A DNA stretch of 64,000 nt from a virus. The translations under genes were made by a program, and so were the position numbers. The stretch covers positions 119,296 through 183,295 of IMG/VR virus record IMGVR_UViG_3300047498_000060; one strand, given 5' to 3'. Positions 6,465 through 32,421 of the stretch are shown here, one piece after another. Below the pieces are notes generated by a model that saw only the letters and a list, made by a program, of their open reading frames with translations, had not been told where the DNA came from and ran no database searches. Every line of letters begins with the position of its first letter. The first letter of the stretch is position 1.

Positions 6465-6470
6465 GGGATG

Positions 6471-7229
6471 TCAGCGAGAGAAGTGGGCCTTCGGTCCGGA
6501 ACGTTGAGCCGCCGCTGCCTCCCATGCCTGGGAACGATCCTTGAACGGCCGGGGACTGCCTTCTCCTGTTCCTTCCTGCGCTTCTTGCGCTCGCATCGCC
6601 TGTACTCTCTCGTTACTGCGCCCAAGCTCCTCCCCTACTTCCCCAAACCCACCGACTCCCTGCCGGCGCACTGGCTTGTTCGTACGCATGAAGCCCACAG
6701 GGTCCTTGAAGGGCTTGCCCCCTCCCGGCGATGCCATGCCTTTCTGCGCGCCCTGCAACATCGCAGACCCGATCCCCTGCGGAGCGTGAGTGCCTCCGCC
6801 TAGCATCTTGTGTCGTGAGTCGAGCGCTCCGTTGATGAGACCGTTCACTCCCATGGGGTTGTCGACCATCTGACGCACGTAAGCGCCGGCGACGGTGGGA
6901 TCCGAAGAGAACTCCGGAGCGAACGTCCGTAGTGTCGAGAACATCCGGTTCACCTTGCGCGGGTCGCTCTGGTGCAGCTCTTGGAGGTCGTCGTTCTCGG
7001 CGAGCATGGCCTTGAAGTCGCGGGATTTGGTGGCCGCGTCATAGATGGCGTGTCCTGCCATGCCGACTGCGGCAACAGCGCCCGCGCCAAGTGCCGCTGC
7101 TCCGGCACCAACGATACTGCCGGCAAGGTTCTTCGGCGCCATCACAGCCTTAGCCGCCTGGCCGAAGGCCTGCCCGTACCCAGCAGCTTTCTTCTCGAGG
7201 TACTCCGTCAGCGGGTTCTCACTGGCCAT
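6471..7229 (-). CDS. Gly/Ala-rich virion-block protein with one hydrophobic segment
   Basis: 252 residues from the ATG at 7229, which overlaps the upstream gene's stop by 11 bases; the open frame continues further upstream but that part is antisense-like. Residues about 30-60 form a long Gly/Ala-rich hydrophobic stretch that could insert in a membrane. The C-terminal third is basic and Gln/Arg-rich. It starts with a KKAAG motif like its neighbours. Gly/Ala-rich hydrophobic proteins in head blocks are often internal or ejected proteins; that role is only inferred. Confidence 0.6.
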   Translation of the reverse strand: MASENPLTEYLEKKAAGYGQAFGQAAKAVMAPKNLAGSIVGAGAAALGAGAVAAVGMAGHAIYDAATKSRDFKAMLAENDDLQELHQSDPRKVNRMFSTLRTFAPEFSSDPTVAGAYVRQMVDNPMGVNGLINGALDSRHKMLGGGTHAPQGIGSAMLQGAQKGMASPGGGKPFKDPVGFMRTNKPVRRQGVGGFGEVGEELGRSNERVQAMRAQEAQEGTGEGSPRPFKDRSQAWEAAAAQRSGPKAHFSR

Positions 7230-8439: not shown

Positions 8440-8534
8440 ACGCCGATAGTAGCGCGCACTCATGCTAAAGAGAAAGACCCCGCGACGGTTGGCGCCGTCC
8501 GAGGCCGAGACCAGCACCTGGATGAGAGGCACCG

Positions 8535-8926: not shown

Positions 8927-9632
8927 GTACGTGACCAGGGATGAAGCGGCCGAGCTCCTAGAGGTCGACCTACGCACCGTTGTCCGATGGACGAAAAGCG
9001 GTCGCCTTGTGGCAGCCTCTTTGCAGAAGAGTGGTCCGAAAGGAGGGCGCCCCTCGGTCCTCTACAAGCGGGCCCACATCGTGGAGATGGCAGCGCTCCT
9101 CGCCGACCAGCCCGATCTGGCGAAGATGCACGCGCTCGGCTTGCGGAATGCCGCGTCTGTCTCAACCCTCGAGCGACGCACCGACGAAATCTATGACGCG
9201 ATGGGACTGGGTGTCGCAGCCCTGCGAACGGACGAGAGCTCCATGCACGCGCTGTTCAACGAGACGAACTACGCCCCGGATCGAACGATGCTCCGGACCG
9301 TTACGTGGGTCCGCATGTGGGGCTCGCACTTCTTCGGCATGAACACGTTCTACTTCGAGTTAGCCAGCCAGGTACTGCAGAAGCCGGACGTCTGGCAGTA
9401 CTACATCGCCTTTGGGGACCTCATCGAGTATCGCGCCCAGGACCTCCTTCAAGTTGTCATCCAGAATGACGCGGAGCTCGTGCGCGCGTATCGCTACCTC
9501 GCGGCGGCGAAGCGGCATCTCTTCTACCAGGGCTTCATGTACTGCGTGCAGCACCACGGCATGCAGGCGGCCGTCGCTAAGCTCGGTCGCCCACCGAACG
9601 CCATCACCGAAGTCACAGCGCTGCTGAACTAG
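8904..9632 (+). CDS. Helix-turn-helix DNA-binding protein
   Basis: 242 residues. Residues 10-60 form a MerR/excisionase-like winged helix (TRDEAAELLEVDLRTVVRW, then a Gly/Lys-rich turn and a strand). The remaining 180 residues are helical and unknown. It starts behind CTGGAG. It is convergent with the terminase gene: the palindrome CTAG at 9629-9632 supplies the stop codons of both. Two roles fit: a repressor or activator of the late block, or a terminase small subunit, given its place beside the large subunit and its DNA-binding domain. The opposite orientation to the terminase favours a regulator slightly. Confidence 0.7.
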   Translation: MPKPEPSEYVTRDEAAELLEVDLRTVVRWTKSGRLVAASLQKSGPKGGRPSVLYKRAHIVEMAALLADQPDLAKMHALGLRNAASVSTLERRTDEIYDAMGLGVAALRTDESSMHALFNETNYAPDRTMLRTVTWVRMWGSHFFGMNTFYFELASQVLQKPDVWQYYIAFGDLIEYRAQDLLQVVIQNDAELVRAYRYLAAAKRHLFYQGFMYCVQHHGMQAAVAKLGRPPNAITEVTALLN

Positions 9633-12541
9633 CCCTGGTTCGTCGGGCCGCTCCAAGTAGAACGGAGCGGGCCCACACCCGGGAGCTCGCGGTTCGGCGC
9701 GATTATGTCGGGGCGCGGGAACTTGAGCATCGAGGCGAGGAAGCAGTAGAGCACCGCGTGCATCGTGTCGTCAGGACGATCAGGACGATGGTCGTACTGG
9801 AGCATCCGCAGCGTGCTGTTGTACTTCGCGAAGATGTTCAGGAAGTCATTGCCGTGCGGGTCCTCGAACTCGTCCCAGTTCGGGAACTCGATCTGCTTGC
9901 GCTTCACGGCGTTGAAGAGGTCGCTCATCACCTCCGTGCGAACCGCCATGTAGCGGCGGAAGCCGGGGTGGAAGTAGAGCTTCTTCTTGCCACGCGGAAG
10001 GTACTGGTACTTCCAGATGCGCTTCGGTCCGAAGAGGCGTGTCAGGTGGTCGTTGGGGTGGAAGCCTCCGCCGTAGTCGGCGCCCACCAGGAGGACGTTG
10101 AAGTACTGGAGCATCTGCGAGATCTTCGTGAGCTGCGGCTCCGGGTTCACGTCCTCCCCGGTGAAACGGTGCGCATAGAAGATGCGGAATCGGTTGCCGA
10201 TATACGTGCCGAGAACGAGCACCGTGTACGTGTTCTCTCCGGTGTTGCCTTGATAGGCGATGCAGCCGTTGCGCTCCGTGACGATGTAACCGGTGGGGAC
10301 CGCACAGCAGTACACCTTGCCCTTGTAGGGTACGTGCTTCACGGCGTTGTGTGGAACATTCAACTGGTAGTCACGCCCCTCGGACCACAGCGCCCGCCAG
10401 CGCGTCTTGTGGTTGCCTTCTGCGGGCTTGTGGAGGCGGACGACACAGCGAAGGCCGAGGCGGATACAAATCTCCTGGAAGTCGTCGCACAGCCCCTTCG
10501 ACGTCGAGTAAAACGCGCCGCCGGTGCAGCCCTCCCGCGGGTCCGTGTAGCCGTCCCCGTCGACGAGCGCATGGAACAGGATGCGGAGCTGACGCGGCGA
10601 GAGCGATAAGAACTTCCGCGGGATGCGTTTCTCATCCCCCTCGACGCCGATGTTCTCCGCGTACCAGGACCAGTACTGCTTGCCGTAGATGGTCCAGTTC
10701 ACATCGCCGGTCTTCGGATTCGGGAACCGCGAATGAGGTACCGCCAGCTTGTCCAGGCAGCGCTGCATCTTCAGGTAGGTCTCGTGGTTGATGGTCTCAC
10801 GTTGAGACATCTTCACGCACGACATCCGGCCGTCGTCGAAGCACACGCCGCCCTCTGTGATGAGGTAGCCCAGCAACTCGAGCCAGTCGTCCATCGGCAC
10901 CGTGCGCGCATCCGACCCGCCATAGCCAGGAGACGCTGGAAGTCCGGGCAACGTGAATCGCTTGACCTCTTCCCCTACCCAGCTCACGTGCCCGACAAAC
11001 GACACGCAGCCGCCGCGCTCCGCTGTAACACCCGCGGACTCGGTGACCCACTGCTCTCGCCCAGCGACCGTGACGCGCATCCGATGCGTCGTTGTGACCA
11101 TCAGGTCCAGGCCGCCGCGGGTCTTGAAATGGCGCAAAGGCTTGTCCCAATCACGCACCGTTCGCGCTAGTGGGCGCACGAAGGTCATCGCCCGCGTCTC
11201 TGGATCCCACTGTGCCACACGGTCGTCGTCGACGAGGTCGCGGAAGTACTTGAAGCCGTCCTCCGTCAGGATGCGGGTCTCTTCGTCATGGCAACCCCAG
11301 TCTATGCCTGCGAAGACTGGCTGTCCCGCACTGAGAGTCTTGTACTTCTCCAGGCTGTGCGAAAGCATCGAGCCGCCCGTGCAGCACTCCTTCAGCTGCT
11401 GTCGCGTAAGAGGACGCAAGCCGGAGTCGTACGAGATGCCGAGCACTTCGTTGTGGAAACGCGCACGGTCATAGCGCGTGTAGTCCAGCATGATTTCTTG
11501 CCATGACCGCCACGGCACCATCAGCTGCGGGATGCGGTAGCTCTCGAAGATGCCCTTCGACTGGAGCATCGTCCACTGTGCGTCGCTGTGCGCGGGATCG
11601 ATGGGTTTGTGGCACTTCTCACAGGAGAGACCCTTCTTCTGGATGTTCGCCTCCCCAAGGATGTTCCAGTACCGGCCTGTCTCCCCACCGTGCCGGTCGC
11701 AAGGAACGGCCCACTCCCCCATCGTCGACATCGGGGTACCGTCCTTCGACGTCCCGCTGCGGTAGTACTCGATGGAGTTGTCTAGACCCTTGGGTGTACC
11801 TGCGTAGATGAAGCTCTTCCACTTGTCATCGGCGTGGCTGACGGCCTGCTCGATGACCGGGATGTTGTCCGAGAGGATGTCTTGGATCTCGTCGATGCAC
11901 AGACGCCAGGCAGAGATACCTCGGATGCGGTCGGCGTTGAGGAAGGCGTAGCGGAGCGTGATCTTCGAGCGATTCACGAACTGCTTCTCAAAGACGTTCT
12001 GCTGGAGGAGTGTTGTCGTGAAGCCTTTCAAAACGTCGCTGGTCTCGAGAGGTTCTTTCAGGCGGTCGACCGAGAAGGTCTTGGTCTGCGTCGCCGACGG
12101 GGAGACGTAAAGCGTACGGTACCCCGGGACCATGCAAGAGTACGCGACGGCCAGGTTCCCGAGCGCCGTCGACTTCTCGACCTGACGACCGCACATCAGA
12201 TGGATGCGCTTCGCTGGCGTGTCGTAGATGCGCCGCATGTGACGACGGCCGTTGAAGCTGAACGGCACGTGCGTAGGGTCAGTCTCCTTCTGGATGTTCG
12301 TGTTCGGCATCCGGAACGCGAACTCAGTGAACTCCGAAGGCATGACGCTCAGCATCCCCGCCGGTCGTGCGAGGGATGCGTCACCGAAGAGGTCGTAGTC
12401 GCCGCACGGGTCGTCTTCAGGAGCCCAGCCCGACGCGAGAATCTCGTCGATCAGTTCTTGCTCTCGCAGGTCTTCTTCAGCATCCTCGTCGGTGTAGGGC
12501 ACATCGTCCACTGCTACATCCGGTTCAATACCCATCGTCAT
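9629..12541 (-). CDS. terL: Terminase large subunit, interrupted by an intein
   Basis: 970 codons; 620 residues after removal of the intein (residues 417-766). The ATPase domain has a Walker A-like CGRQVEKST, a Walker B LCIDEIQD and the coupling motif AGTPKG. A Cys cluster (CDRHGG, CEKCHKPID) is inserted in the ATPase domain. The RNase H-like nuclease has acidic sites at GIDWG, VGADYGGG and DRPDDTMHA. This protein powers DNA packaging at the portal and cuts the concatemer. The small subunit is not certain; candidates are the flanking genes. The start is ATG 12541 (second ATG at 12535). Confidence 0.93.
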   Translation of the reverse strand: MTMGIEPDVAVDDVPYTDEDAEEDLREQELIDEILASGWAPEDDPCGDYDLFGDASLARPAGMLSVMPSEFTEFAFRMPNTNIQKETDPTHVPFSFNGRRHMRRIYDTPAKRIHLMCGRQVEKSTALGNLAVAYSCMVPGYRTLYVSPSATQTKTFSVDRLKEPLETSDVLKGFTTTLLQQNVFEKQFVNRSKITLRYAFLNADRIRGISAWRLCIDEIQDILSDNIPVIEQAVSHADDKWKSFIYAGTPKGLDNSIEYYRSGTSKDGTPMSTMGEWAVPCDRHGGETGRYWNILGEANIQKKGLSCEKCHKPIDPAHSDAQWTMLQSKGIFESYRIPQLMVPWRSWQEIMLDYTRYDRARFHNEVLGISYDSGLRPLTRQQLKECCTGGSMLSHSLEKYKTLSAGQPVFAGIDWGCHDEETRILTEDGFKYFRDLVDDDRVAQWDPETRAMTFVRPLARTVRDWDKPLRHFKTRGGLDLMVTTTHRMRVTVAGREQWVTESAGVTAERGGCVSFVGHVSWVGEEVKRFTLPGLPASPGYGGSDARTVPMDDWLELLGYLITEGGVCFDDGRMSCVKMSQRETINHETYLKMQRCLDKLAVPHSRFPNPKTGDVNWTIYGKQYWSWYAENIGVEGDEKRIPRKFLSLSPRQLRILFHALVDGDGYTDPREGCTGGAFYSTSKGLCDDFQEICIRLGLRCVVRLHKPAEGNHKTRWRALWSEGRDYQLNVPHNAVKHVPYKGKVYCCAVPTGYIVTERNGCIAYQGNTGENTYTVLVLGTYIGNRFRIFYAHRFTGEDVNPEPQLTKISQMLQYFNVLLVGADYGGGFHPNDHLTRLFGPKRIWKYQYLPRGKKKLYFHPGFRRYMAVRTEVMSDLFNAVKRKQIEFPNWDEFEDPHGNDFLNIFAKYNSTLRMLQYDHRPDRPDDTMHAVLYCFLASMLKFPRPDIIAPNRELPGVGPLRSTWSGPTNQG
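10244..11293 (-). mobile_element. Intein with LAGLIDADG-type homing endonuclease domain, in the terminase gene
   Basis: 350 residues in frame. It begins with Cys (CHDEETRILTEDG) right after GIDWG and ends with CIAYQGN, followed by Thr as the first C-extein residue. The penultimate residue is Gly rather than the usual His, so the C-terminal splicing step uses a variant motif. Dodecapeptide-like motifs LLGYLITEGG and LFHALVDGDGY mark a LAGLIDADG homing endonuclease. The frame is intact. It splits the first acidic motif of the nuclease active site from its following strand, so unspliced terminase should lack nuclease activity. Confidence 0.9.
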
Positions 12542-14904: not shown

Positions 14905-17220
14905 TTAGCCAGCGGTGAAAGCAAGCTGCTGGAGACCCTCGATCACTTGCTCCACGGTGCGCATCGCCTTCTCGAGTGCGGGGACAGGAATGTTCCGCAG
15001 ACCGAGGCGTGCTGCCAGAAGGAGCTCGCAGATCTTCTCTTGCGCCTCGTCGATCTTCGGGAGGTACGAGATGAAGACGCCGAGGTTCTCTGCGTTGAGG
15101 AAGCCGAGGGAAAGAACCGCATCGACTGCCGTAGGGTCCGGGATGATCGCAGCCTCCTTCACGAGGTCACGCTTCAGCCAGGTTGCTGCCTCGGCGGCAG
15201 GCCCAGCCTCCGCAGCGAGTTTTGCCGCATCTATCTTTGTCTGAAACGCGGCGGGCTGGATGTAGTGCGCCACGCGCACGTCGACGGGCACGTTGTGGTA
15301 CTCCGCCTCGCCCATCTTCTTCTGAGCGTAGGCCATGTCCACGCCGAGGCCCGCGAGGAGGAAGAGCGTGTCGTCGATGCTCATGAAGGAGCGTTCGTCC
15401 GACGCGAGCTTGTCGACGGGGAAGCCGCTGACAGAGAAGGCCCCACCGCCACCGCGGAGGGTGACGGTCGCGAGCGCGCGCTGCGCCTGGGCTTCTTTGC
15501 TGAAGCCCTCCGGCTTCTCGACGAGCGTGGTGTCCTCCGCCTTGTCGAGCGGCAGCCAGGAGAACGTGTCGGGGATGAGCAGACGGTCGCCGTCGGGGGA
15601 CGGCATGACCTTCTGGATGTTCGGCTGCACCGAGATCTGCACTTCGCGGCCGTCATACGTGACGCAATGGAGCACCGCGCCGCCGTTCTGCTGGTCGTTG
15701 ACCGAGCCCTTCACGGTGACCGGGATGGTGGCCTCCGCCTTGCCGTTCTGGAGCACGTGGTAGAAGCACCCCACTCCCTTCGGAGTCCCCTCGAAGATGC
15801 TGCCTCCGTGGCCCGCGTGAACGCCGGCGATGTCGCTCTGGACCGCGTAGTGGCTGCCGTTGGTAAAGAGGGCGATGGGAAGTGACGTGCCGTCGACGTC
15901 GATGAGGTTCGGAAAGACGTAACCGACCAGGTGCCGGCCTTTCTCGTCCTGCACCTTGTACATCCCGAAGTGGTCGATGGGCATCGGCTTGTCTTCTTCG
16001 GGGCTCTCCGGCTCACCCACAGGCTTGTCGACGACGTTCTTGTCGGCTGCCTCGCCTTCCGCGGGCGGCTGATCCACGGTCATCGTTGCAGAACCCGTCT
16101 CGTCTGCCGCAAGGACGACCTTTCCACCGAGCAGCCTGTAGGCCGCGCCGCGGTCGAGGAGCTCTTCCTTCGGAGCCCAGCTGACGCGCGAGGCGGACTT
16201 CGCCAGGTACCCCTCGTCCACCTTCTGGAGTTGGATGACCGTCGGACGGATGGCATCTGCTTCGGCTGTCTTCGGGGTGTACTCCAGGAGCGCCTTCAGA
16301 GAGTCGCCCGATGCGTTACCGTTGGCGACGAACTGCCGCTGCAAGCCCATGTCGCTGCCCATCTTGGCGATGAACGCGTCGTAGTCCTTCTCGGCGATGG
16401 TCGGCAGGATGGCTGCGAGGACCGAGGCCGCCTTCGGCATCGCGGCCGTGGCCTTCGTTGCCGCGATGTTCGCGCCGGCCAGGTACTTCTGCCCCTTGGC
16501 TGCAGCAGCTCCACCCTCGCCCACCATCTGAGCTCCGCGCCCCATCATCGAGCGCGACGCGCCGGCGAGTGCCTGCGGATTCGTCTGCTTCTTCAGATAA
16601 CTACCGACGGTCGAGAGACTCAGCGCCTGCTTCACTTTGGCCTGCTTCGCCTCTGCGTAGGCCTCCTCGAGGAACGACTCGAACGCCGAGCCCTCTTTCC
16701 CCATGCCCACACTCATCGTGGCGCCGCCCCCGCCGAAGCCGTAGTTCTGACGGTACGGCGGGTAGAGCTGGCCGATGAGGGACATGTCGCCGGGCCCGCG
16801 GCCTGTGATGTCGAAGGCCTGGGGGCGGAAGATGGCCTGGCGCAGGCGCATCTCCGTGAGGGGCAGGAGCTTCGACTCGCCGGCGACCATCAGGTCGAGA
16901 GGCTGGAGCTTCTTGTCCTTGATGATGACGGGGACGCGCACCTTCTGGATGCCAGCCGCCGCGCTCCCCGCCGGGTCAGCGCCGTGCTGAATCTCGGTCT
17001 TGTTCTGGATCTCGAGATGACCGAAGCCGTACCCGCGCTCCCCGTCGACCTTGTCCATCGTGACCTGCGGCTCGAAGTCCGCAACGAACGGGCACTGCTT
17101 GTAGACCTCCTGCATGACCTCGGTCGGCCACTGGTTGGGGTCGTCGGAGAGCATCGTCTCCCCACCGGCGGTCTTCTCGAACTCGACATCGGGGGTGAGG
17201 AACAGCGGCTGCATCGTCAT
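14905..17220 (-). CDS. Large virion structural protein of unknown function
   Basis: 771 residues. It opens with MQPLFLTPDVEFEKTAGG, carrying the EKTA motif shared by head-block proteins. Residues 180-290 are Ala/Gly-rich helix, and residues 390-420 are a Pro/Glu linker. The C-terminal half is beta-rich, then helical. It is preceded by the hydrophobic 17273-17947 gene and follows the baseplate spike region, so it could belong to tail or baseplate assembly or be an internal virion protein. No family was recognised. Confidence 0.65.
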   Translation of the reverse strand: MTMQPLFLTPDVEFEKTAGGETMLSDDPNQWPTEVMQEVYKQCPFVADFEPQVTMDKVDGERGYGFGHLEIQNKTEIQHGADPAGSAAAGIQKVRVPVIIKDKKLQPLDLMVAGESKLLPLTEMRLRQAIFRPQAFDITGRGPGDMSLIGQLYPPYRQNYGFGGGGATMSVGMGKEGSAFESFLEEAYAEAKQAKVKQALSLSTVGSYLKKQTNPQALAGASRSMMGRGAQMVGEGGAAAAKGQKYLAGANIAATKATAAMPKAASVLAAILPTIAEKDYDAFIAKMGSDMGLQRQFVANGNASGDSLKALLEYTPKTAEADAIRPTVIQLQKVDEGYLAKSASRVSWAPKEELLDRGAAYRLLGGKVVLAADETGSATMTVDQPPAEGEAADKNVVDKPVGEPESPEEDKPMPIDHFGMYKVQDEKGRHLVGYVFPNLIDVDGTSLPIALFTNGSHYAVQSDIAGVHAGHGGSIFEGTPKGVGCFYHVLQNGKAEATIPVTVKGSVNDQQNGGAVLHCVTYDGREVQISVQPNIQKVMPSPDGDRLLIPDTFSWLPLDKAEDTTLVEKPEGFSKEAQAQRALATVTLRGGGGAFSVSGFPVDKLASDERSFMSIDDTLFLLAGLGVDMAYAQKKMGEAEYHNVPVDVRVAHYIQPAAFQTKIDAAKLAAEAGPAAEAATWLKRDLVKEAAIIPDPTAVDAVLSLGFLNAENLGVFISYLPKIDEAQEKICELLLAARLGLRNIPVPALEKAMRTVEQVIEGLQQLAFTAG

Positions 17221-18552: not shown

Positions 18553-19845
18553 TCAAGCGAGAACATCCGGGTTGCCGCCGGTGTTAGTACCAAACACCTT
18601 GCCTGTGAGGAGCAGGTTTCCTGGTGTCGGTAGGATCTGCATCGTGCCCGTCACAGGCCCTCCAGTAGGAGGAAACGCAGGCGCCGTAAATATGACCTGC
18701 ATCAGAGGTGAAGTCGCCGTGAATGGTTGCGTAGGATCTATGGGCGTTGTTACGACGTCACCCTGTCTGACTACCGGCAACGTTCCGGCGCCTAGGCGTA
18801 CAACCTTCCCCTTGATAGCCGTGTAGGACCCTCCGTCGATGTCGATGCCGTTGACGGCGGTCACCGAGATGGAGTCCTTGCACGTAAGCGTCACGGTGCC
18901 GGTGACGTCGAAGGTGAGATTCTTCGTAACCTGGAAGTAGAAGTTGCCGGCGAAACGCGCGAGCCCGTTGCCCTGCCGATCGAAGGTGAACTTCATCACC
19001 GAGGCTGCGACCGCACCGCTCAGGACCTCGCCCGTCTGGGTGTTGAAGCCCTTCGGTGAGACAGTCACCTCATAGACGATGGGGTTGCCCCCCTTACCGT
19101 CATCGCCAGCGCCCACGCCTGCGGTGCCGATGCCCGTCGAGTCGGGCTCGGGGATCGGGTTGGTCACGTAGCCGGACGCGATCTTGATGTCGGCAGCTGC
19201 GTCGTTCGCGAACACACGCAGCGTCTGCATGTACGTCGCGGGGTACTGCGAGATGGAGGGCCCCACCTGGATGCCCCACGCTATGGTGCCACCCGCGTTG
19301 TCGTGCTCGTAGTTCTGGCTGATGTCGATGACCTGGTTGTTCAGCGGAATGAAGATGCGCTGAGCGAGCTCGGTAGAGCCGATCTGCAAGACACCGCCGC
19401 GGCGCAGGATGACGAAGTTGTCGTCACGCGTACGCACCCAGATGTCCCCCGGGTTGGCCGGAGGACGCCCTCCTGCAAAGCTCGAGTCTGTTGAGTTCGC
19501 TACCGGAGCTCCGTGTGAGGCGGTGCCTTGCGGCGCGTCTTCCGTGGAGGCGTCGACGGTCTCCGACGCCATGACGAAGCACAGCACGAACGGCGGCGAG
19601 GTATCGCTGGGGAGGGCGACCATGACCGTCGCGTTCACCTCAGGCATCACGTAAACGCCCTCACCGTTCGAGTGGTGCAGGTAGGGCGAGCCGACCGAGA
19701 TGCCCTTGTAGAACGTACGATCGAACTGTCCCTGGACATCGACCGTCCAGTTGTTCAGGTTGTAGTTCACAACCTTGCCTTGGACGATCCGACCCGCATC
19801 GTGCCCCTGCCGGCCCGTGAAGGAGGTACGAAACTTCGAGGCCAC
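18553..19845 (-). CDS. Baseplate spike-like protein
   Basis: 430 residues from a GTG behind GAGGTAGAG. Residues about 18-95 look like the N-terminal OB-fold domain of gpV/gp5-type tail spikes (GKVVNYNLNNWTVDVQG, then VNATVMVALPSDTSPPFVL). The middle and end are beta-rich with short repeated strands, fitting a trimeric beta-helix or beta-prism spike (FYFQVTKNLTFDVTGTVTL). Such proteins form the membrane-piercing tip under the baseplate. It is the gene right after the RNA polymerase. A tail-fibre-like protein with an OB domain is the alternative. Confidence 0.6.
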   Translation of the reverse strand: MASKFRTSFTGRQGHDAGRIVQGKVVNYNLNNWTVDVQGQFDRTFYKGISVGSPYLHHSNGEGVYVMPEVNATVMVALPSDTSPPFVLCFVMASETVDASTEDAPQGTASHGAPVANSTDSSFAGGRPPANPGDIWVRTRDDNFVILRRGGVLQIGSTELAQRIFIPLNNQVIDISQNYEHDNAGGTIAWGIQVGPSISQYPATYMQTLRVFANDAAADIKIASGYVTNPIPEPDSTGIGTAGVGAGDDGKGGNPIVYEVTVSPKGFNTQTGEVLSGAVAASVMKFTFDRQGNGLARFAGNFYFQVTKNLTFDVTGTVTLTCKDSISVTAVNGIDIDGGSYTAIKGKVVRLGAGTLPVVRQGDVVTTPIDPTQPFTATSPLMQVIFTAPAFPPTGGPVTGTMQILPTPGNLLLTGKVFGTNTGGNPDVLA

Positions 19846-19859: not shown

Positions 19860-22800
19860 TCAGTAATGGTGCGGAGCGACGTCTTTGAGGTGACCTTGGC
19901 CCGGAACAAGAGAGTCCTTCTTCGTTAGGCCTACCTCAGCCCCAAACGCAAGGGCCGGGATCGGATGCGTGCCATGCACAAGGGAGACGCCATGGACGGC
20001 CGCAGCCTCCTGGAGCGTTTCGCGCAGGTGGTTGTGCTGCAACTTCGCCATCCAGTCCTCGTGGAGTCCGCGCGGCATGATGTCGATGCCTTTGAGAACG
20101 GGGCTGTGTTCGATGGGCGCCTTGCCGGCGCGAATGAGCTCCTCGTTCATCTTCCGAACAACAGGGAGCGGACGGAACTCTCCACGCAGGACAGTGTCGT
20201 GGTCACCTGGGTCTTCCACACGCGTGAGGCTGCCCATCGACTTCACCACCATCTCGATAGCGCGGCGCTTGAGACCCTCGTTCTTGTAAAGGTCAAAGAT
20301 GGCCCCGGTCAGATGGTTCTGGACCTTGTCCATAGAGCCCGTGGCCGCAAAGAGATGGTGCGGATTCACCACAGTACGATTCGGATCGGAGAGGTTCTGC
20401 CCGGCCTCGACCTTCATCCCCACCTTCGGCGGGAACCAGGACTTGTAGCCAGCGATCACCGAGGCCCCTGGGAGGTTCTCGTGCAGGGCAAAGCCGCCGG
20501 CGTCCTTGCCGACGTGGTGCTTGCGTCCGCCCACGAAGATGTCCACGCCCGTCGCAGTCGGCTGGATCTTGTCGATGGTTCCTGCAGCGCCGGCGATGGT
20601 CGCCTGATTCGCAAGCTTCTTCGGCAGCCGTAGGAGGTTGTCGAAGTGTGCGAAGGCGCTGAGCAGCTTCGAGCCACCCTGCTCGCTGACGCCTCCAGTG
20701 TGGAAGCTCTTGAGGGTAAGCTGCACCGCGCGCTCTCCGACGGCGTGTGCGGCCTGCACACCGACGTTGGTGCCGAGCTCGTAGTGCTGCCCGCCCGAGG
20801 TCAGGCCTGCACACTTCTGGCAAACGCCATGCTCTTCCTCGCATTTCAGCGGCGAACGCACCACGATGCTGGCATGCGGGTCAGCCGCGCGGATCTTCCC
20901 GACCTCCGCCGGCGTGAGCATCGTGCCCGCAGCGATGTGTGTGTTGCCGTGGTTGAAGTCCTGTTGGAGGTAGCGGTCGTGGACGTCGGGCTCGTTGATG
21001 TCGAGCGCAACGCCTTCCTTCGTCCCACAGTCGTGACTGTTGACAAGCACGTTCACCATGCTCTGCATCAGCACCTTCGAGAGGGCGCCGGGCTTCTCGA
21101 CTTCCTGCACCTTCATCACAGCGCCGCGGCGAGCTCCGTGCATCTGGGTCCAGTAGCTACCCATGTCGAGCCCCTCGGAGTAACTCTTCGTGACGGCGTT
21201 CGGGATGGGACGGTCGTGCGCGTCACGGTAGATCATAGGCGCCAGTACCATCTGCCGGTACTGATCCCACCCTGGCTTCACGCCGGCCTTGTACATCGTG
21301 AAGAGGTTGCTGGGATGTTCCTCTTGACTCTTCACGTGCAGCGCCTTCATCTCCGCAGCTGCCTCGTTGTACAGAGCGACGACCTGGTGATCCTTCTGCG
21401 CCTGCGTCAGCTTCGTGCTGGCTGCGACTTGCTTGACCTTCTCTTCGATCGGCTTGAGCGCCTTCTCTCGAGAAACCACGTCCGGTACGAAGTCCTTGAG
21501 TGAGAGGGAGTGCGTAGGCATCGGGACGAAGATGCTCTTGTGCGGATCAAGCGCAGCGTTGTGGACCCCTCCCTTCCCGAACTCGAACGGGTGACCCATA
21601 CCTGTGGGGCGCGGGACCAACACGGAGCCGAAGGCCGCCCCGTTGCCGAGGTCCTTGAGTTTGTTGACGGAGCTGTCGTAGCTCGCGGTGTGCTCACGCG
21701 CGATGCGGGTGAGTAGCTTGTCGAGCCCCTTCGTGCCGCCCTCTTTCGCGCCTGCGTTGTCCAGGCGGTATTTCATGTCGTGCATCATGTGCGACTCGAG
21801 GTCGGGCGGCACCGCGCTGGACAGGAGCACGCGCCCTGGCGTCGTCATGCCGCCAGGAAGGTGGACCTGGTCGGTCATCTCAATGTGGCCCTTCTGCACA
21901 GCAGACAGCACCTCCGCAGGGTTCCCGTACTTCTTCCCTGTGTCCTTGCCGACCACCGAGAGCTTGTAGAGACCGAGTGCGCTCTCGAGCGTGGGCTGGT
22001 ACATGCTCTTGCCCGAGGCATCGCTGAAGAGATTGTTCGAGGGGAACATCTTCCGCGCCTCAGCCTTGGCTGCCTCTGTGATGGGCACGTACGCGCTCAT
22101 CGTGTCGCCGTCGAAGTCCGCGTTGAAGCCGCCAGTCACGAGAGGGTGGATCTTGATGGCGTTGCCTTCGACCGCGCGCGCCTTGAAGGCCTGGATGCTG
22201 TACTTGTGCAGAACCGGATCGCGCTTCAGGAGCACGGGATGGTCTGCCATCACCTTGTCGAGCGCCTTCCAGACCTGCGGAGTTGGCTTCGCAAGCAGGG
22301 GCGGCGCATCGAGCTCCGAGCCAATGGCTCCCATCTCCTTGAGCTTCCGCACCACGAAGGGCCGAAACAAGTTGAGCGCGGCGTTCTTCGGCAGACCCAC
22401 CTCATCGAGACCGAGCGCAGGCTCAGGCACGATGGTGGAGCGCATCGAGAGATCCTGACGACGGCTCAGGAGCACATTCTGAAAGTAGCCGTACTTCGGT
22501 GAGCTCCCAGCGATGCGATGGAGGATACCCTTCTCCTTGGCGTCCGCGTACGGCGTGCCGACGCCCATGAGCGCCTTCACTCCGTCGTAGTAGTCGACGC
22601 GCAGGTCCCGCTTACCGGTCTCTAGGATGTCCCGCTTGATGACCGGATCCTTGAGCTCGTCGTTGACCTTCGCGAAGTCTGAATAGAGCTGGTTCAAGTC
22701 ATCTGGCTTCAGGCTTCCGTCGGGCATCGGGGTGATAGGGCGCATCACCGGGGGGAGCACAGGCAGGTGGTGGAGCACGTACGCCTCGCTGGGCTTCAGC

Positions 22801-25800
22801 TTGAGGTCATGAAGCGCTCGCAAGAACTTCACTCGCTTCAGCGCCGGGTCGATCTTCGCCCCCGTCGCGCGATCGAGCGCCACTTGGGCAGGGCCAATCT
22901 CCTTACGCACATCTACGCGATCGAGGAGGAGCTTGATGCCCGCGCCACCGGTGGTGCCCTTGTTGGGGTCGGTCAGCTGCCCAGTGGGAGTCACGCCCTT
23001 CTCCCCATGAACGATGGCCTGGAAGTCCTTCTTGCCGATCTGGGCCACACTACAGATGGCCTTCTCGAAGAAGGGATTGGGCAGCGGTTCCGCGAGCTCG
23101 ATGTGCGTCCAGTGACGCCCCCCGTGTCCGCCTGTAAGACGCTCGTCGAAGAGCCCCCCGGTGCGGGGCTTGAGTTCCCCCTTCGAGTCGAGCTTCGTGT
23201 TGAGCCGCTCGGCTGCGTGGGTCAATGCCTTTGGTGCGAGCTCGAGGACCTGCGCGTCCGTCATCGGAGAGAGCGAGATGCTGTGACCGACCTTGTCCAC
23301 ATTCACGCCGGTCGCCCGAAGCATGTCGGTGAACTTCTGGTAGGCGAAGGTCGGCTTCGGCGGTGGGATGAGTCCTCCCGACTGGATCGCCGCCCAGATC
23401 TTGTTGTGGTCGCTCGGCCATGCCTTGCGTGGGTCGGTCTGCGGGTCCACACCCTCGGACTTGTACGTCTGCATCTCGCGCAGGTTGGCTTTCGCTCCGT
23501 GCGCCAGGAGCGCGTAGAGATCGAGGCCACCGATGGAAGGACCGCCCGTGCCGGAGCCGCCCACGGGCTGCAGGTTCAGATCGTAGCCCTCAGGCTGCAT
23601 CCCCGGGATGTTCATCCCGCTGCGCACCGAGAGCTTCTTCTCGACCTGATGGACGAGCTTCAGTAGGTGTTGCGGACCCACGAGTGCCTTGCCCAGAGAC
23701 TGGTGCGTGTGGGGATCGAAGAGCTCCTCGGTGTCCTCGAGGCCGTGAGCCTTGAGGTCCGCGGTCACCTTCTCGAGCGCGTTGAACTTCGGCTGGAAGT
23801 TCTGGACGACGTACGGCTTGCCCGTCTTCAGCGCGATCTTCCCTGCGGCCGTCTCGAGGACCTGGCCCACGTTCATGCGACCGGGCACCCCCGAGGGATT
23901 GAGTGCGACCTCGACGTGCTTGCCGTCCTTTGTATGAGGCATCTCCTTGTCGGGGAGGATCATCGTGCAAATGCCTTTGTTGCCGTAGCGCCCGGCGAGC
24001 TTGTCGCCCACCTGCATGGGCTCGACAGTCCGCACATGCACCGTCACCCCCTCCTTGGTGTGGTGCACGCCGACGACCTGACCATCGAACTCACTGTCCC
24101 ACCGCAGACTCTTGTCCACGTGCGCAGCAGCCATCACCTTGCGGACCGCGGCCATCCCCGTGCGGTCCTTTAGCTGATAGGGCTTCATCGCGGTGATGAG
24201 CGGGTCACCTGGCTTGACCGTCTGGCCAACACGGATGACGCCCTTGTCGTCGAGCTTGTCGAACTGCTTCGTGTTGTAGAGCCCGTGGTGCTCCAACATG
24301 AAGCGCTTCTTGTCGAGCACCAGCGTGTCCTCGAGTGGCAACGAGGGCTTGTGCATGTGCGCGCTAGATAGGGCCTCTGCTGCACTCTGGCTGATGACGA
24401 CGCCGTCCTCGAAGTTGTACCCCTTGAACGGGATGTACGCGACGCGCAGGTTCGTGCCGAGCGCGAGGATGCCCTTCTTCGAGTAGTTCGTGTCCGCGAC
24501 CACCTGGTTCTTCTTCACGCGGTCGCCGACAGCGACGATGGGGGTGGAATCGAGCACCCCCTTCGCCTCGTTGACCGGGAAGTTGTGGTAAATCTGGACC
24601 TCGTGCTTCTCCCCTGTGTCGCTATGAATGGTCACGCCCTGTGGAGTCACTGCGACGACCTTGCCGTCCGCCGGCGACGTGTGTGAGGTGAGCCCTCCCA
24701 TGAGACGCTCGAAGGTCTGACCGCCTTCGGTGCTCGCCCCTGTGCCGACCTGTACAAGCGCGGGTTCGCGATGCACGAGAGAGATGGCCTGCTCCATGTG
24801 CCGGCTCGCCATAGAGGCGCGTCCACCAGAGGTGTTCGCCAGGAACGGCAGCAGGTTCGACGTCATGTTGAAGAGCTGGCTGGGATAGCGGACAGCGTAC
24901 TGCGCGTTCGAGAACTTCCCCTGCCGCACGTCATCCCCGCCACCAGTCATCTGCACCATGTCGCCGATGGGGTGCGGCCTGCCGTCTACCCAGTGCACCT
25001 GATCTGGCAGCACGATGTGGACCTTGGAGGCTTCCCCCGGAGAGACCAGATCGTACTTGCCGGTCTTTAGGTTGTAGAGACGAATGCGAGCTTCGCCGCG
25101 CGACTCTCCGCTCACAAGTCGATCGACTTTCTGCAGCCCGAAAGGAAGACGCAGTGTCACGCCAGTGGACGCGCCTTCGGGGGTGTTGATGGGATCGAGG
25201 AAGCCTAGGTGGCTGGCGTTGATGAACTTCACCTCGTCTTTGATCTGTCGGTCGCTCTGGATGCCGCCAGGCCCCATGACTGTGGTCTGGAAGGATGCGG
25301 CTAGCATCTCCACCGGGTTGATCTGCGCAGCCGGTCCGGCCGCTGCGTTCTTCTGGAACGTCTCCAAGATGGGCTTGTTGAACATCCCGATCTGGACAAC
25401 GTCACGGACATTCTTCGCTTGGTTGATCTTGGCAGAGATCTTCCGCTGGATGACCTTCCGTCCCGCCTCTAGAATACGGTCGTGCGCGAAGTCTCCTACC
25501 GAGCGCAGATCCTTGAAGATGAGCGACTCGCGATCGTCCTCCTTCGCACCGCCCTGCACGCGTAGGAGCTTCTCTGTCGCACGCTGCAGTGCATCCCCAG
25601 TTACGTGCTCGAACGGCTTGCCCAATGTGAGCTCCGTCGAATCGGGGCGCAGCACGGAGGCAGTCATCGTATCGTAGAAGTGAGCTGCCGCAGTCTCGTG
25701 ATCCGGAGCTGCGACTTTCTTCGTGCTCTTGTAGAAGGCAGCGAGAGCGCCGTCCTTCTTCGCGGCGTTCTTGTTCGCTTCGTAGACCTCTTTGCCCCAG

Positions 25801-26417
25801 GCCTTCTCGAGCTGCGCGTCATCGACGCCGAGCGTCTTCACAAGCTGATAGAGCGGGATCTTGCTTGAGCTCTTCCCGTACTCCATGTGGAAGACCTTGG
25901 TGTCGGGATTGAACACCACGTCGAAGCTCTTGCGGTTCTTGATGTTGAACTGCGTCTCGAGCTCTCCGTTGAGACGCCGCTGCGTGTACACGCCTGACTT
26001 CAGCTGCCACTGGTTGTTGACCTGATATTCCTTGGCGCCACTGCGCGACGAGACGATGTACGAGTACCGGTTCGTCATCTTCGGGATGTCGGCGATGCGC
26101 ATCTTGCGCGAGTCCACGACATTGCCCGTCGCGTTGTCACGCAGGGTGAGGTTGGCGTACACAGGCACGGACCACGTCTCGCCGGCGAGCTTGTGCGCGT
26201 GCTGGTCGCGGATGTCCGATGGATCCTTGTCGTCCTTGATGCTCAGCCCATCGAGGTGGAGCGACTGAGTCTTCCCCTTGATGACGCCATCCGGGAACTG
26301 ACTCTTGATCCCCTCGAGCACGCGCTGCTGGAGGTTCTCGGATGCTTCTTTGGGGTCCAGGTAGGCCAACGGATGTACCTCAGCTTCAGCGTACCGCGCG
26401 GCAGGAAAGCGGTGCAA
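19860..26417 (-). CDS. Single-chain RNA polymerase: fused beta and beta' subunits
   Basis: 2185 codons. Beta-type signatures come first: NASHLGFLDPINTPEG (near residue 414), SGGRASMASRHMEQ, VAYIPFKGYNFEDGVVIS, and GDKLAGRYGNKG followed by NPSGVPGRMNVGQ (near residue 810). Beta'-type signatures follow: GLFDERLTGGHGG, RDPVLHKYSIQAFKA, the metal-binding loop NADFDGDTM (near 1434), a trigger-loop region GARRGAVMKV, and CEEEHGVCQKC with AAHAVGERAVQLTLKSFHTGG. The order beta then beta' in one frame is direct. E. coli beta plus beta' total about 2750 residues, so this chain is compact; the usual N-terminal beta' zinc domain was not seen. The start is uncertain: TTG 26417 has no ribosome site, TTG 26369 follows GAGGT. 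No alpha, omega or sigma gene was recognised nearby. Confidence 0.95.
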   Translation of the reverse strand: MHRFPAARYAEAEVHPLAYLDPKEASENLQQRVLEGIKSQFPDGVIKGKTQSLHLDGLSIKDDKDPSDIRDQHAHKLAGETWSVPVYANLTLRDNATGNVVDSRKMRIADIPKMTNRYSYIVSSRSGAKEYQVNNQWQLKSGVYTQRRLNGELETQFNIKNRKSFDVVFNPDTKVFHMEYGKSSSKIPLYQLVKTLGVDDAQLEKAWGKEVYEANKNAAKKDGALAAFYKSTKKVAAPDHETAAAHFYDTMTASVLRPDSTELTLGKPFEHVTGDALQRATEKLLRVQGGAKEDDRESLIFKDLRSVGDFAHDRILEAGRKVIQRKISAKINQAKNVRDVVQIGMFNKPILETFQKNAAAGPAAQINPVEMLAASFQTTVMGPGGIQSDRQIKDEVKFINASHLGFLDPINTPEGASTGVTLRLPFGLQKVDRLVSGESRGEARIRLYNLKTGKYDLVSPGEASKVHIVLPDQVHWVDGRPHPIGDMVQMTGGGDDVRQGKFSNAQYAVRYPSQLFNMTSNLLPFLANTSGGRASMASRHMEQAISLVHREPALVQVGTGASTEGGQTFERLMGGLTSHTSPADGKVVAVTPQGVTIHSDTGEKHEVQIYHNFPVNEAKGVLDSTPIVAVGDRVKKNQVVADTNYSKKGILALGTNLRVAYIPFKGYNFEDGVVISQSAAEALSSAHMHKPSLPLEDTLVLDKKRFMLEHHGLYNTKQFDKLDDKGVIRVGQTVKPGDPLITAMKPYQLKDRTGMAAVRKVMAAAHVDKSLRWDSEFDGQVVGVHHTKEGVTVHVRTVEPMQVGDKLAGRYGNKGICTMILPDKEMPHTKDGKHVEVALNPSGVPGRMNVGQVLETAAGKIALKTGKPYVVQNFQPKFNALEKVTADLKAHGLEDTEELFDPHTHQSLGKALVGPQHLLKLVHQVEKKLSVRSGMNIPGMQPEGYDLNLQPVGGSGTGGPSIGGLDLYALLAHGAKANLREMQTYKSEGVDPQTDPRKAWPSDHNKIWAAIQSGGLIPPPKPTFAYQKFTDMLRATGVNVDKVGHSISLSPMTDAQVLELAPKALTHAAERLNTKLDSKGELKPRTGGLFDERLTGGHGGRHWTHIELAEPLPNPFFEKAICSVAQIGKKDFQAIVHGEKGVTPTGQLTDPNKGTTGGAGIKLLLDRVDVRKEIGPAQVALDRATGAKIDPALKRVKFLRALHDLKLKPSEAYVLHHLPVLPPVMRPITPMPDGSLKPDDLNQLYSDFAKVNDELKDPVIKRDILETGKRDLRVDYYDGVKALMGVGTPYADAKEKGILHRIAGSSPKYGYFQNVLLSRRQDLSMRSTIVPEPALGLDEVGLPKNAALNLFRPFVVRKLKEMGAIGSELDAPPLLAKPTPQVWKALDKVMADHPVLLKRDPVLHKYSIQAFKARAVEGNAIKIHPLVTGGFNADFDGDTMSAYVPITEAAKAEARKMFPSNNLFSDASGKSMYQPTLESALGLYKLSVVGKDTGKKYGNPAEVLSAVQKGHIEMTDQVHLPGGMTTPGRVLLSSAVPPDLESHMMHDMKYRLDNAGAKEGGTKGLDKLLTRIAREHTASYDSSVNKLKDLGNGAAFGSVLVPRPTGMGHPFEFGKGGVHNAALDPHKSIFVPMPTHSLSLKDFVPDVVSREKALKPIEEKVKQVAASTKLTQAQKDHQVVALYNEAAAEMKALHVKSQEEHPSNLFTMYKAGVKPGWDQYRQMVLAPMIYRDAHDRPIPNAVTKSYSEGLDMGSYWTQMHGARRGAVMKVQEVEKPGALSKVLMQSMVNVLVNSHDCGTKEGVALDINEPDVHDRYLQQDFNHGNTHIAAGTMLTPAEVGKIRAADPHASIVVRSPLKCEEEHGVCQKCAGLTSGGQHYELGTNVGVQAAHAVGERAVQLTLKSFHTGGVSEQGGSKLLSAFAHFDNLLRLPKKLANQATIAGAAGTIDKIQPTATGVDIFVGGRKHHVGKDAGGFALHENLPGASVIAGYKSWFPPKVGMKVEAGQNLSDPNRTVVNPHHLFAATGSMDKVQNHLTGAIFDLYKNEGLKRRAIEMVVKSMGSLTRVEDPGDHDTVLRGEFRPLPVVRKMNEELIRAGKAPIEHSPVLKGIDIMPRGLHEDWMAKLQHNHLRETLQEAAAVHGVSLVHGTHPIPALAFGAEVGLTKKDSLVPGQGHLKDVAPHHY

Positions 26418-26587: not shown

Positions 26588-26775
26588 ACACGCTCTGGAA
26601 GTTCTTCATCGCGGGCCTTCTGAATGGACTCATGATCTGGATGCGCGAACGACTCAAGGAGGATGATGCTGCTCAACGTTTACGAAACGCGTCCGGAAGT
26701 AGTTCCGGGAACGCGTCGACTGGAGGCGGACTTCGGGATCCAAGGCCAACGCCTCCGGGACCTGTACAACGCTGA
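26584..26775 (+). CDS. Possible small membrane peptide
   Basis: Frame of 63 codons starting at GTG 26584, coupled to the previous stop. Residues 4-20 (LWKFFIAGLLNGLMIWM) are a good single membrane segment, followed by a basic and acidic helix. However, its second half overlaps the next, much better supported gene by about 110 bases and becomes low-complexity there. It may be real but short-lived in evolution, or only a chance frame. Confidence 0.35.
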   Translation: MNTLWKFFIAGLLNGLMIWMRERLKEDDAAQRLRNASGSSSGNASTGGGLRDPRPTPPGPVQR

Positions 26776-30354: not shown

Positions 30355-30380
30355 AGGAAGGGCCTCGTGCCCTTCTTCTT
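30355..30380 (+). terminator. Intrinsic terminator after the MoxR/VWA operon
   Basis: GAAGGGC-CTCGT-GCCCTTC hairpin (30357-30375) followed by TTCTT, three bases after the VWA stop. It lies between convergent genes (VWA and portal). The U-rich side favours the plus direction. Confidence 0.75.
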
Positions 30381-32421
30381 AGGTACCGCCTGCTCGACGA
30401 GGGGGACGCTGCTGCGGCATCGGGCGCGTGTCGACGCCGGCCACCTGCGACCCGGTGTTCCCTGAATCGTCTCCGCCCTCGCCTCCCATCTGGGCCAGGT
30501 ACTGACGCACCAAGTCCGCGAGCTCGGGACTCTGGAAGCTGAGGTTGGTGATGGCCTGCGTCTGCTGCTGCTTCGGCAGAGTCGCGATGGTGCGCGCCTG
30601 CATCATCGCAAGAGAAGGCAGGTCGATGTTCTGCTTCGCCTGTCCACCGCCCGCGCCCTGCATCCTCTGCCCGCCTGAGAGTTGGCTGCCGATCTGCTGC
30701 AGGAAGTCTGCTGGGGATGCTCCGTTCGCGGGCTGCTGTGGAACCTGCTCTCCTGGCTGGGGTGCCTGCCCTTGCTCAGGAGGGGGAGGCGCCATGCCTG
30801 TCGCTTGCGGGCCTTCGGCACCACCAGGTTCCCCCGGTGCCTGTGGGGCCCCCATCGCGGTCTGGGTCTCCTGCTGCGCACGCGTCTGGTACTTCACCAT
30901 GACGAGTTGGGACTCGCCCTGGATGGTCGCCATCGCGAGCTGCTGCTTCTTCGTGGCCTCGAGACGTGTGTCGGTCTCGCGGATCATGATCTGATTCTCG
31001 TCTTCTTGGGACATATCGCTGTCCGCAAGAAGAGTCGTATCGCTGATCTTGCCGGCCGAGTTGAGCTGGAAGTTGAACGCCTTGCGCTGCAGGTCATCCG
31101 CCATCTTGAACGGCTTGAAGCGGATGTTCGCGAGGGGCCAGCCGAGGAACGAGGAGACCTGCCGCATGATGAAGCGCGCGAGGTCACGCTGACGCTGGAG
31201 GTAGCCAATGAACATGTTCTCGAGCATGCGCATCGAGACGTTCGTGCCAGCGTAACTCATGCCACCCTTGATGAACTCGAGGGGAACACCCATGCCGTTG
31301 AGGATCTGCTCCGACCAGGTCGTGATCTCCTGCGTGAGAAGGAGCGCGCGGCCGTCACCGCCGATGGTCTGGTTGCCAATGGGCAACGGGAGGATGGGGA
31401 TGTAGTTGCTGTCCGTCCTCCACCGCGCGATCTCTTGAGCGATCTGGTCGCGCCAGTCGATGAGATTGATGGTGGTGTAGGGGTCTGAGCTCCCCGAGCC
31501 TGCCTGCGGGAAGATGACGCGGAGCGGGACGATGTGCTCGACGAGGATGGCCTCCTGCGCCTTCTTCATGATCTGCAGGTAGAAGGTGTCCTTCAGGACC
31601 GGCAGGAGAAGCGGGACACCCACGCCGCGGTCCTGCCCTGCCAGGGTCGGACGGCGCATGTGGAAGAAGTTGTCCTTCGAGAAGATGACCCCCTTCTGCT
31701 CACGCATCGCCTGGATGAAGACTTGCGGGATGCCGTCGACGACGTCCTTGCGCCCAATGACGATGTCGTTCCGGATGATCGCGGGGATGTCGTAGAAGTA
31801 CGTGTAGTCCCCGGTCATGTCGTTGTAGCGAACTTCGACGTCCTCCGGGTTCCAGCGGATCGTCTTGATGCCGCTCGCGTTCTTGTAATAAACGTCCTTC
31901 GGCGTGGCATCACCGACGCGACCACAGCGTGGACAGGTGAGCCGGAAGTTGAAGTTCGTGAAGATCCAGTTCGTCCGGATCTTCGACGCCTCATCGCGGA
32001 AGTTGCACGCGTTGCAGAAGAGGAACTTCTTGAACGGGAACCCGAGCGAGACGTAGCCGTTGCCGTACGCATGGAAGTCGAGACCAGACTCGACCTGGAA
32101 CGAGCGGTAGCGGAGGTGATCTTGGAAGTACTCCGTCCAGCGCTTCTTCACCTCCGGATCTTCGTGGTCGATGATGATGTCGGTGACGGGGTACTCGCTC
32201 AGCTTGAACACCGTCGCATTGATGAGCGGGTTCGTGAGGAAGTAGTAACGGCACCACTTGAAGAGCTGCTTGACCGTGACCGGCAGGTACGTGTGCGCGA
32301 TGTCGAAGAACGGCGAAGGGTAGTTGACCCCTTGGATGTTCGAGCCGTTGATGCGCCCGCGTGTTGTGGCAAAGCGAAGCCCGCTTGCCGGGCCCGTCGC
32401 CATTCCTCCCATGAAGCTCAT
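30379..32421 (-). CDS. Portal protein
   Basis: 680 residues. The first 480 residues have portal character: a hydrophobic crown start, helical stem and clip, and segments such as FFHMRRPTLAGQDRGVGVPLL, GGMSYAGTNVSMRMLENMF and a long helical wing. A Zn-binding-like insertion (CNACNF, CPRCGR) lies near residues 135-170. The last 180 residues are Pro/Gln/Gly-rich and probably disordered. The portal forms the dodecameric vertex ring that the terminase docks on. It starts with an ATGA overlap with the upstream gene. It is about 18 kb from the terminase, on the same strand. Confidence 0.8.
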   Translation of the reverse strand: MSFMGGMATGPASGLRFATTRGRINGSNIQGVNYPSPFFDIAHTYLPVTVKQLFKWCRYYFLTNPLINATVFKLSEYPVTDIIIDHEDPEVKKRWTEYFQDHLRYRSFQVESGLDFHAYGNGYVSLGFPFKKFLFCNACNFRDEASKIRTNWIFTNFNFRLTCPRCGRVGDATPKDVYYKNASGIKTIRWNPEDVEVRYNDMTGDYTYFYDIPAIIRNDIVIGRKDVVDGIPQVFIQAMREQKGVIFSKDNFFHMRRPTLAGQDRGVGVPLLLPVLKDTFYLQIMKKAQEAILVEHIVPLRVIFPQAGSGSSDPYTTINLIDWRDQIAQEIARWRTDSNYIPILPLPIGNQTIGGDGRALLLTQEITTWSEQILNGMGVPLEFIKGGMSYAGTNVSMRMLENMFIGYLQRQRDLARFIMRQVSSFLGWPLANIRFKPFKMADDLQRKAFNFQLNSAGKISDTTLLADSDMSQEDENQIMIRETDTRLEATKKQQLAMATIQGESQLVMVKYQTRAQQETQTAMGAPQAPGEPGGAEGPQATGMAPPPPEQGQAPQPGEQVPQQPANGASPADFLQQIGSQLSGGQRMQGAGGGQAKQNIDLPSLAMMQARTIATLPKQQQTQAITNLSFQSPELADLVRQYLAQMGGEGGDDSGNTGSQVAGVDTRPMPQQRPPRRAGGT

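What the first reader, a model, noticed from the sequence alone, without database searches (positions are those of the whole stretch)
19860..26417. Phage-encoded single-chain beta-beta' RNA polymerase beside virion genes
One frame carries the beta signatures and then the beta' signatures, including NADFDGDTM and the trigger-loop region. Known phage multisubunit-type polymerases of the phiKZ group split beta and beta' into several proteins; fused rpoB-rpoC chains are known in some bacteria such as Helicobacter. Here the fusion is in a phage, is compact, and sits at the front of the late block with no alpha, omega or sigma seen. Inference: it could be a virion-packaged or late-gene polymerase with its own promoter rules.
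Basis: partly seen in the sequence, partly recalled or inferred. Interest (0 to 1): 0.88.

Follow-up and report, generated by a model that had tools for sequence, protein, structure and literature searches.

The report
Phage one-piece RNA polymerase with sigma
This bacterial virus carries a complete cell-type RNA polymerase as a single protein, with its own start-site (sigma) factor elsewhere in its genome, and relatives package both in the virus particle, which suggests that it brings its own two-part transcription machine into the cell.

Summary
The gene lies on the minus strand (ORF 19860-26417; best start 26369; 2169 aa). It is a complete bacterial-type beta joined directly to beta', with all catalytic residues, under strong purifying selection (dN/dS about 0.05). 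About 95 distinct IMG/VR contigs carry the same unbroken chain, mostly between portal and terminase/head genes. The lineage matches, or is close to, the published "mReC" phages, called "multimeric" there; here it is one chain. In a sister group (Arash and kin) the gene is broken into 2-3 pieces, but the beta/beta' junction stays fused, so fusion looks ancestral.

No alpha or omega is detectable, but a divergent sigma-70-like gene lies outside the window (contig 61426-62265) and occurs in every related record tested of 180 kb or more. Its Arash homologue (gp10) and the Arash polymerase are in purified virions by published mass spectrometry; the polymerase is the most detected protein.

Best reading: a virion-packaged single-chain polymerase that uses its own sigma for early phage genes. 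Sequence, fusion, partner and context are shown; packaging here, sigma dependence and promoters are inferred. The lineage is known; the single-chain-plus-sigma anatomy appears undescribed in the papers I could search.

The parts
19860..26369 (-). Single-chain beta-beta' RNA polymerase gene, 2169 aa (ORF open to 26417; TTG start at 26369 preferred)
23280..26369 (-). Beta half (about 1030 aa); AlphaFold model pLDDT 81.7, best PDB match cyanobacterial beta (E 3e-66)
19860..23279 (-). Beta' half (about 1140 aa), joined to beta with no recognisable linker; model pLDDT 81.1 (segment 19863-23414), best PDB match Thermus beta' (E 9e-60)
23973..24008 (-). Beta active-site motif GDKLAGRYGNKG (lysines equivalent to E. 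coli K1065 and K1073)
23088..23162 (-). Start of beta' where the N-terminal zinc-binding domain (E. coli C70/72/85/88) is replaced by a short loop; absent in all 69 phage representatives (approximate limits)
22563..22709 (-). Beta' clamp helices (sigma region 2 dock), kept, but residues invariant in 34 bacteria (R275, E295, Q300) are replaced (approximate limits)
22104..22124 (-). Catalytic NADFDGD motif
20811..21029 (-). Second zinc site, four cysteines kept (E. coli C814/888/895/898)
20613..20768 (-). Trigger loop region (QLTLKSFHTGG, His equivalent to H936), no SI3 insertion (approximate limits)
30379..32421 (-). Portal protein gene, upstream of the polymerase (homologue of Arash gp204, E 1e-81; of D69_0259, E 3e-91)
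   Evidence: same side and strand in 90 of 107 related loci
18553..19845 (-). Conserved gene directly downstream of the polymerase (430 aa, function unknown; 85 of 107 loci)
14905..17220 (-). Conserved downstream gene (771 aa; 82 of 107 loci; weak C-terminal match to Arash virion protein gp218)
9629..12541 (-). Large terminase subunit with an apparent intein (970 aa), downstream in 56-58 of 107 loci
3609..8532 (-). Virion protein genes homologous to Arash gp221-gp222 and D69 counterparts
1..340 (-). 5' end of the major capsid protein gene (homologue of Arash gp226, E 1e-34), running off the window

Best explanation
The gene encodes a complete, catalytically competent DNA-dependent RNA polymerase core in one polypeptide. 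The C-terminus of beta runs straight into beta', so alpha and omega are not needed to bring the halves together. Promoter recognition is supplied by a separate phage sigma-70-like protein (g090, contig 61426-62265) that docks on the retained but rewritten clamp helices and flap. Both are made late with the virion proteins, packaged, and delivered with the DNA. In the new cell the two-component holoenzyme transcribes the first phage genes without host RNA polymerase. Shown: intact fused gene, catalytic residues, purifying selection, lineage-wide fusion, virion-gene context, sigma homologue, no detectable alpha or omega. Shown by others in a distant relative: polymerase and sigma in virions. Inferred: packaging in this phage, injection, sigma dependence, early-gene role.
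For: Domains and catalytic residues; AlphaFold halves match bacterial beta and beta'; a profile built from phage sequences only matches solved bacterial beta' at E 3e-203. Same unbroken frame in about 95 IMG/VR contigs, none splitting at the junction; dN/dS 0.046 and 0.10. Portal upstream in 90 of 107 loci and conserved genes/terminase downstream. Sigma family: homologue of Arash gp10, hhalign to sigma-70 97.6%, E 4e-12, collinear through region 4, in 14 of 29 related records including every one of 180 kb or more. Alpha and omega models find nothing above cut-off in this record and seven large relatives. Arash virions: polymerase gp206 3516 spectra (most of all), gp216 1210, sigma gp10 467 (PMC10585845).
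Against: Arash is distant (about 32% and 24% identity to its two polymerase pieces) and its preparation contained 116 proteins, including metabolic enzymes, so carry-over is possible, as its authors say. No promoter motif emerged upstream of genes. The sigma protein's own Pfam score is below cut-off. The contig is linear and may be incomplete, so an unfound subunit cannot be ruled out.
Confidence: 0.6

Rival explanations
1. It is a non-virion, late-gene polymerase: made in the infected cell after host-driven early transcription, reading late promoters with the phage sigma, and found in virion preparations only as carry-over.
For: The gene sits in a structural block; many non-structural enzymes also appear in the Arash preparation; only one cell-type polymerase was found in the contig.
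Against: In Arash the polymerase is the most detected protein of all, above the major capsid protein, which is hard to explain by carry-over alone; spectral counts do favour large proteins.
Confidence: 0.25
2. The chain is only a core that borrows host factors (host sigma, or host alpha/omega) to form a hybrid enzyme.
For: Clamp helices and a flap are retained; Iyer et al. infer that other large phages use phage sigma factors with host polymerase (PMC7824862), so mixing of host and phage parts has precedent.
Against: Sigma-contact residues invariant in 34 bacteria (R275, E295, Q300 of beta'; L901 and F906 of beta) are replaced in most of the phage family, Q300 by Y in 67 of 69, and a phage sigma is present.
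Confidence: 0.08
3. The polymerase drives replication priming or DNA packaging, or is a structural or inactive remnant, rather than mRNA synthesis.
For: Virion gene context.
Against: All catalytic residues are invariant across 69 phage representatives apart from one intein-affected row, and dN/dS is 0.046.
Confidence: 0.05
4. It is a bacterial rpoBC fusion (Helicobacter type) on a host contig, or a recent host capture.
For: It has bacterial-type domain order and clear similarity to bacterial beta and beta'.
Against: The contig is a virus with portal, terminase and capsid genes. Phage beta and beta' each form one group separated from 18 bacteria by long stems, support 100. The zinc-binding domain is lost in all phage representatives.
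Confidence: 0.02

Closest known systems
mReC: multimeric RNAP-encoding Caudovirales (Weinheimer & Aylward 2020, PMC7481178)
   Same: Tailed-phage contigs, beta and beta' recognisable by cellular models, NADFDGD, RNAP beside structural genes, clade separate from cells.
   Different: The main text describes beta and beta' as subunits of a multimeric enzyme and does not mention fusion within mReC or a sigma partner. Here capsid and terminase do not match the Pfam families given for mReC (PF07068, PF03237) in single-sequence scans.
Salmonella phage Arash (gp206, gp216, gp10; PMC10585845) and Vibrio phages D69, D148, D181
   Same: Homologous polymerase with the beta/beta' junction fused, portal gene upstream, sigma homologue; virion presence shown by mass spectrometry in Arash.
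   Different: The chain is broken inside beta' (about 1525 + 606 aa); some uncultured kin break it into three. The window's phage has one chain.
phiKZ-group virion and non-virion polymerases (AR9, phiKZ; PMC7598289)
   Same: Phage-encoded relatives of cellular polymerase, no alpha or omega, virion form.
   Different: [quoted passage not shown] here one chain plus a sigma-70-like protein.
crAss-like phage single-chain polymerase, and YonO of SPbeta
   Same: Single polypeptide in a phage; the crAss-like enzyme is a virion polymerase (from general knowledge).
   Different: Those are so divergent that cellular beta/beta' models do not readily find them (PMC7481178); this one matches bacterial beta and beta' throughout.
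Thermus phage P23-45 tape-measure-fused virion polymerase (PMC10770324)
   Same: Virion polymerase related to cellular enzymes.
   Different: There the polymerase is fused to the tape measure protein; here beta is fused only to beta'.
Helicobacter-type bacterial rpoBC fusions
   Same: Beta and beta' in one chain (from general knowledge).
   Different: Host enzyme with alpha, omega and host sigma. No Helicobacter sequence was in my tree; the phage group lies outside all bacteria sampled.

Membership tests
mReC (Weinheimer & Aylward 2020) | Recognisable beta and beta' each of 800 aa or more, with NADxDGD | tested here: met
   Beta about 1030 aa and beta' about 1140 aa; Pfam Rpb2/Rpb1 domains; NADFDGD. 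Pfam models stood in for COG0085/COG0086.
mReC (Weinheimer & Aylward 2020) | RNAP clade separate from cellular polymerases | tested here: inconclusive
   Separate from 18 bacteria with support 100 for beta and beta', but no archaea, eukaryotes or published mReC sequences were in the tree.
mReC (Weinheimer & Aylward 2020) | Major capsid protein of PF07068 | tested here: not met
   Capsid homologue g161 has no PF07068 match at E <= 0.05; single sequence only, and the paper found capsids in only 8 contigs.
mReC (Weinheimer & Aylward 2020) | Terminase of PF03237/VOG01069 | tested here: not met
   Terminase matches PF05876 instead; VOG not available here. The paper reports exceptions.
phiKZ-type multisubunit phage polymerase | Beta and beta' each split into several proteins; no sigma homologue | tested here: not met
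   One chain; sigma homologue present.
crAss-like / YonO single-chain polymerase | No ready sequence match to cellular beta/beta' models | tested here: not met
   Strong matches to bacterial beta and beta'.
Bacterial rpoBC fusion | Nests within a bacterial phylum; carried on a host genome | tested here: not met
   Outside all bacteria sampled; virus contig.
Active cell-type RNA polymerase core | DxDGD aspartates, two beta lysines, bridge helix, trigger-loop His | tested here: met
   All present.
Virion RNA polymerase | Present in the particle and injected | not testable with these tools
   Only the Arash homologue has published virion mass spectrometry.
Sigma-70 family (partner g090) | Regions 2, 3 and 4 in order | tested here: met
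   hhalign 97.6%, E 4e-12, collinear; single-sequence Pfam region 3 only, below cut-off.

The most novel reading that the evidence does not exclude
A widespread phage lineage carries in its virion a minimal two-component, alpha-less and omega-less transcription machine: one fused beta-beta' chain plus its own sigma. The fused chain is the ancestral form of this deep polymerase branch, and the split forms in Arash-like phages are secondary.
Probability: 0.45. Interest if true: 0.78.

Novelty: new variant of a known kind. Interest (0 to 1): 0.62.

Why it matters
A single-polypeptide bacterial-type polymerase with a paired sigma would be among the simplest sigma-dependent transcription systems of this fold. 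It would show that the alpha assembly platform can be replaced by covalent fusion, and would offer a compact tool enzyme predicted to resist rifampicin (the pocket residues D516, H526 and S531 are replaced). It also suggests that the polymerase of a published phage lineage, described as multimeric, may really be one chain in many members, which bears on how that deep branch is aligned and rooted.

Tried and rejected
Promoter motif: k-mer and spaced-pair counts in 91 upstream regions; GTACA and TGTTC words looked mildly enriched but had no fixed position or pairing, so rejected. Sigma Pfam models on the whole record: region 2 gave nothing and region 4 pointed to g158, an HNH endonuclease with helix-turn-helix repeats, not a sigma; the real sigma came from homology to Arash gp10. 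Omega: one sub-threshold 17-residue hit, taken as chance. T7-type polymerase PF00940: no hit, but the control rang nowhere, so uninformative. The PDB profile search with A1 was discarded as not independent because A1 contained E. coli beta'; the phage-only alignment replaced it. Genome-contig scan for integrated relatives or hosts: it returned cellular rpoB and rpoC, used only as references. Downstream genes g176 and g175 matched none of the Arash or D69 virion proteins compared.
Full report
WHAT IS THERE. The start is most likely TTG at 26369 (GAGG just upstream; relatives align from the same residue), giving 2169 aa. Pfam domains fall in order: beta (Rpb2 domains 3 and 6), then beta' (Rpb1 domains 1, 2, 5). 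The NADFDGD motif is at 22104-22124 and is not expected by chance. The window is bases 119296-183295 of a 183,295-bp virus record. That size is close to Arash (180.8 kb), D69 (186.7 kb) and the longest related contigs, so the record may be nearly complete, although it is linear.

ANATOMY. Aligned with E. coli, the chain keeps both active-site lysines of beta, the three catalytic aspartates, R425, the bridge helix, the trigger-loop histidine, and the second zinc site. It has lost the N-terminal zinc-binding domain of beta' and the large E. coli insertions. The C-terminus of beta continues directly into beta' with no recognisable linker. Across 69 phage representatives the catalytic residues are invariant (one row differs at an intein) and the zinc-binding domain is absent in all. 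AlphaFold models of the two halves (mean pLDDT about 81-82, built only from phage sequences) match bacterial beta (best E 3e-66) and beta' (best E 9e-60). dN/dS is 0.046 against a 95% identical relative and 0.10 against an 84% one.

FUSION IS A LINEAGE TRAIT. Two scans of IMG/VR brought in 105 distinct related contigs (duplicates between the two scans removed by hand). About 95 hold the full or nearly full chain as one frame, and the others are cut by contig ends; none separates beta from beta'. The set is biased towards the nearest relatives (best 80 kept). Cultured relatives are Salmonella phage Arash and Vibrio phages D69, D148 and D181, where the gene is broken inside beta'. A further scan found 27 loci of Arash kin: some in two pieces, others in three, with the extra break about 75-100 residues into beta'. 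In all that reach it, the first piece still runs across the beta/beta' junction. The parsimonious reading is that fusion came first and the breaks later. Trees of the beta and beta' halves agree and put all phage sequences on one side of a branch with support 100, far from 18 bacteria. Long branches meet there, no archaea were included, and the root is unknown, so I make no claim about age.

NEIGHBOURHOOD. The same-strand gene upstream is the portal protein, found on the same side in 90 of 107 related loci. Two conserved genes lie downstream in 85 and 82 loci, and terminase in about 57. Genes further on match Arash and D69 virion proteins up to the major capsid protein. The polymerase is therefore inside the virion-protein block.

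THE MISSING PARTNER. No alpha or omega was detected above cut-off in this record or seven large relatives, while the control genomes rang. The absence of sigma was an artefact of the window. Gene g090, at contig 61426-62265, is homologous to Arash gp10, annotated as a sigma factor. Its family aligns with sigma-70 profiles from about region 1.2 through region 4 (97.6%, E 4e-12), although a single-sequence Pfam scan gives only a sub-threshold region 3. It occurs in 14 of 29 related records, including all four of 180 kb or more, and in the cultured phages. In the polymerase, the sigma docks (clamp helices, flap) remain, but residues invariant in 34 bacteria are replaced, for instance Q300 by Y in 67 of 69. 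This suggests a private sigma rather than the host's.

VIRION. In purified Arash particles the homologous polymerase was the most detected protein (gp206, 3516 spectra), with gp216 (1210) and sigma gp10 (467) also present (PMC10585845). The authors themselves offer both early transcription and carry-over as explanations. That is the only experimental evidence, and it comes from a distant relative.

MECHANISM AND LIMITS. The best-supported reading is a virion-delivered two-component holoenzyme acting on early phage genes. Not shown: that this phage packages the protein, that it initiates with g090, or at which promoters. My motif search found none.

KNOWN OR NEW. The lineage corresponds to, or lies close to, the mReC phages of Weinheimer and Aylward (PMC7481178), whose main text calls the enzyme multi-subunit and does not mention fusion within mReC. 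A later paper treats a viral beta-and-beta-prime gene as distantly mReC-like (PMC10159854). Two mReC marker tests, capsid and terminase Pfam families, were not met, so I do not file it as a formal member. It differs from phiKZ-type (split, no sigma) and crAss-like/YonO (too divergent for cellular models) enzymes. I found no description of the single-chain-plus-sigma anatomy in the open-access library searched; most subscription papers are not in it.

Noticed in passing
window 9629-12541 (-): The large terminase gene is 970 aa with a LAGLIDADG domain at 655-723: an apparent intein.
   Followed up: partly
window 3609-6464 (-): Virion protein gene (951 aa, Arash gp222 homologue) carries Hint and LAGLIDADG domains: a second apparent intein.
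   Followed up: partly
L020, L038, L039 (relatives): Large insertions, apparently inteins, sit exactly at the catalytic NADFDG(D/N) motif of the polymerase; L021 and L038 have further ones in beta. L269 and L271 have 2829-aa chains.
   Followed up: partly
window 26666-30352 (+): Four opposite-strand genes, including an ATPase and an HNH endonuclease, lie between portal and polymerase in 33-38 of 107 relatives.
   Followed up: partly
L237-L263 (Arash-like contigs): The polymerase gene is progressively broken into two or three pieces, with the beta/beta' junction always kept.
   Followed up: yes
window 36385-53649 (+): Replication genes: two helicases (one DnaB-like), family A DNA polymerase, UvsX-like recombinase, Cas4-like exonuclease.
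   Followed up: no
L090:3-4895 (+): A cellular metagenome contig (bacterium CSMAG_1505) has a 1631-aa frame that runs from beta into beta', suggesting a bacterial rpoBC fusion.
   Followed up: no
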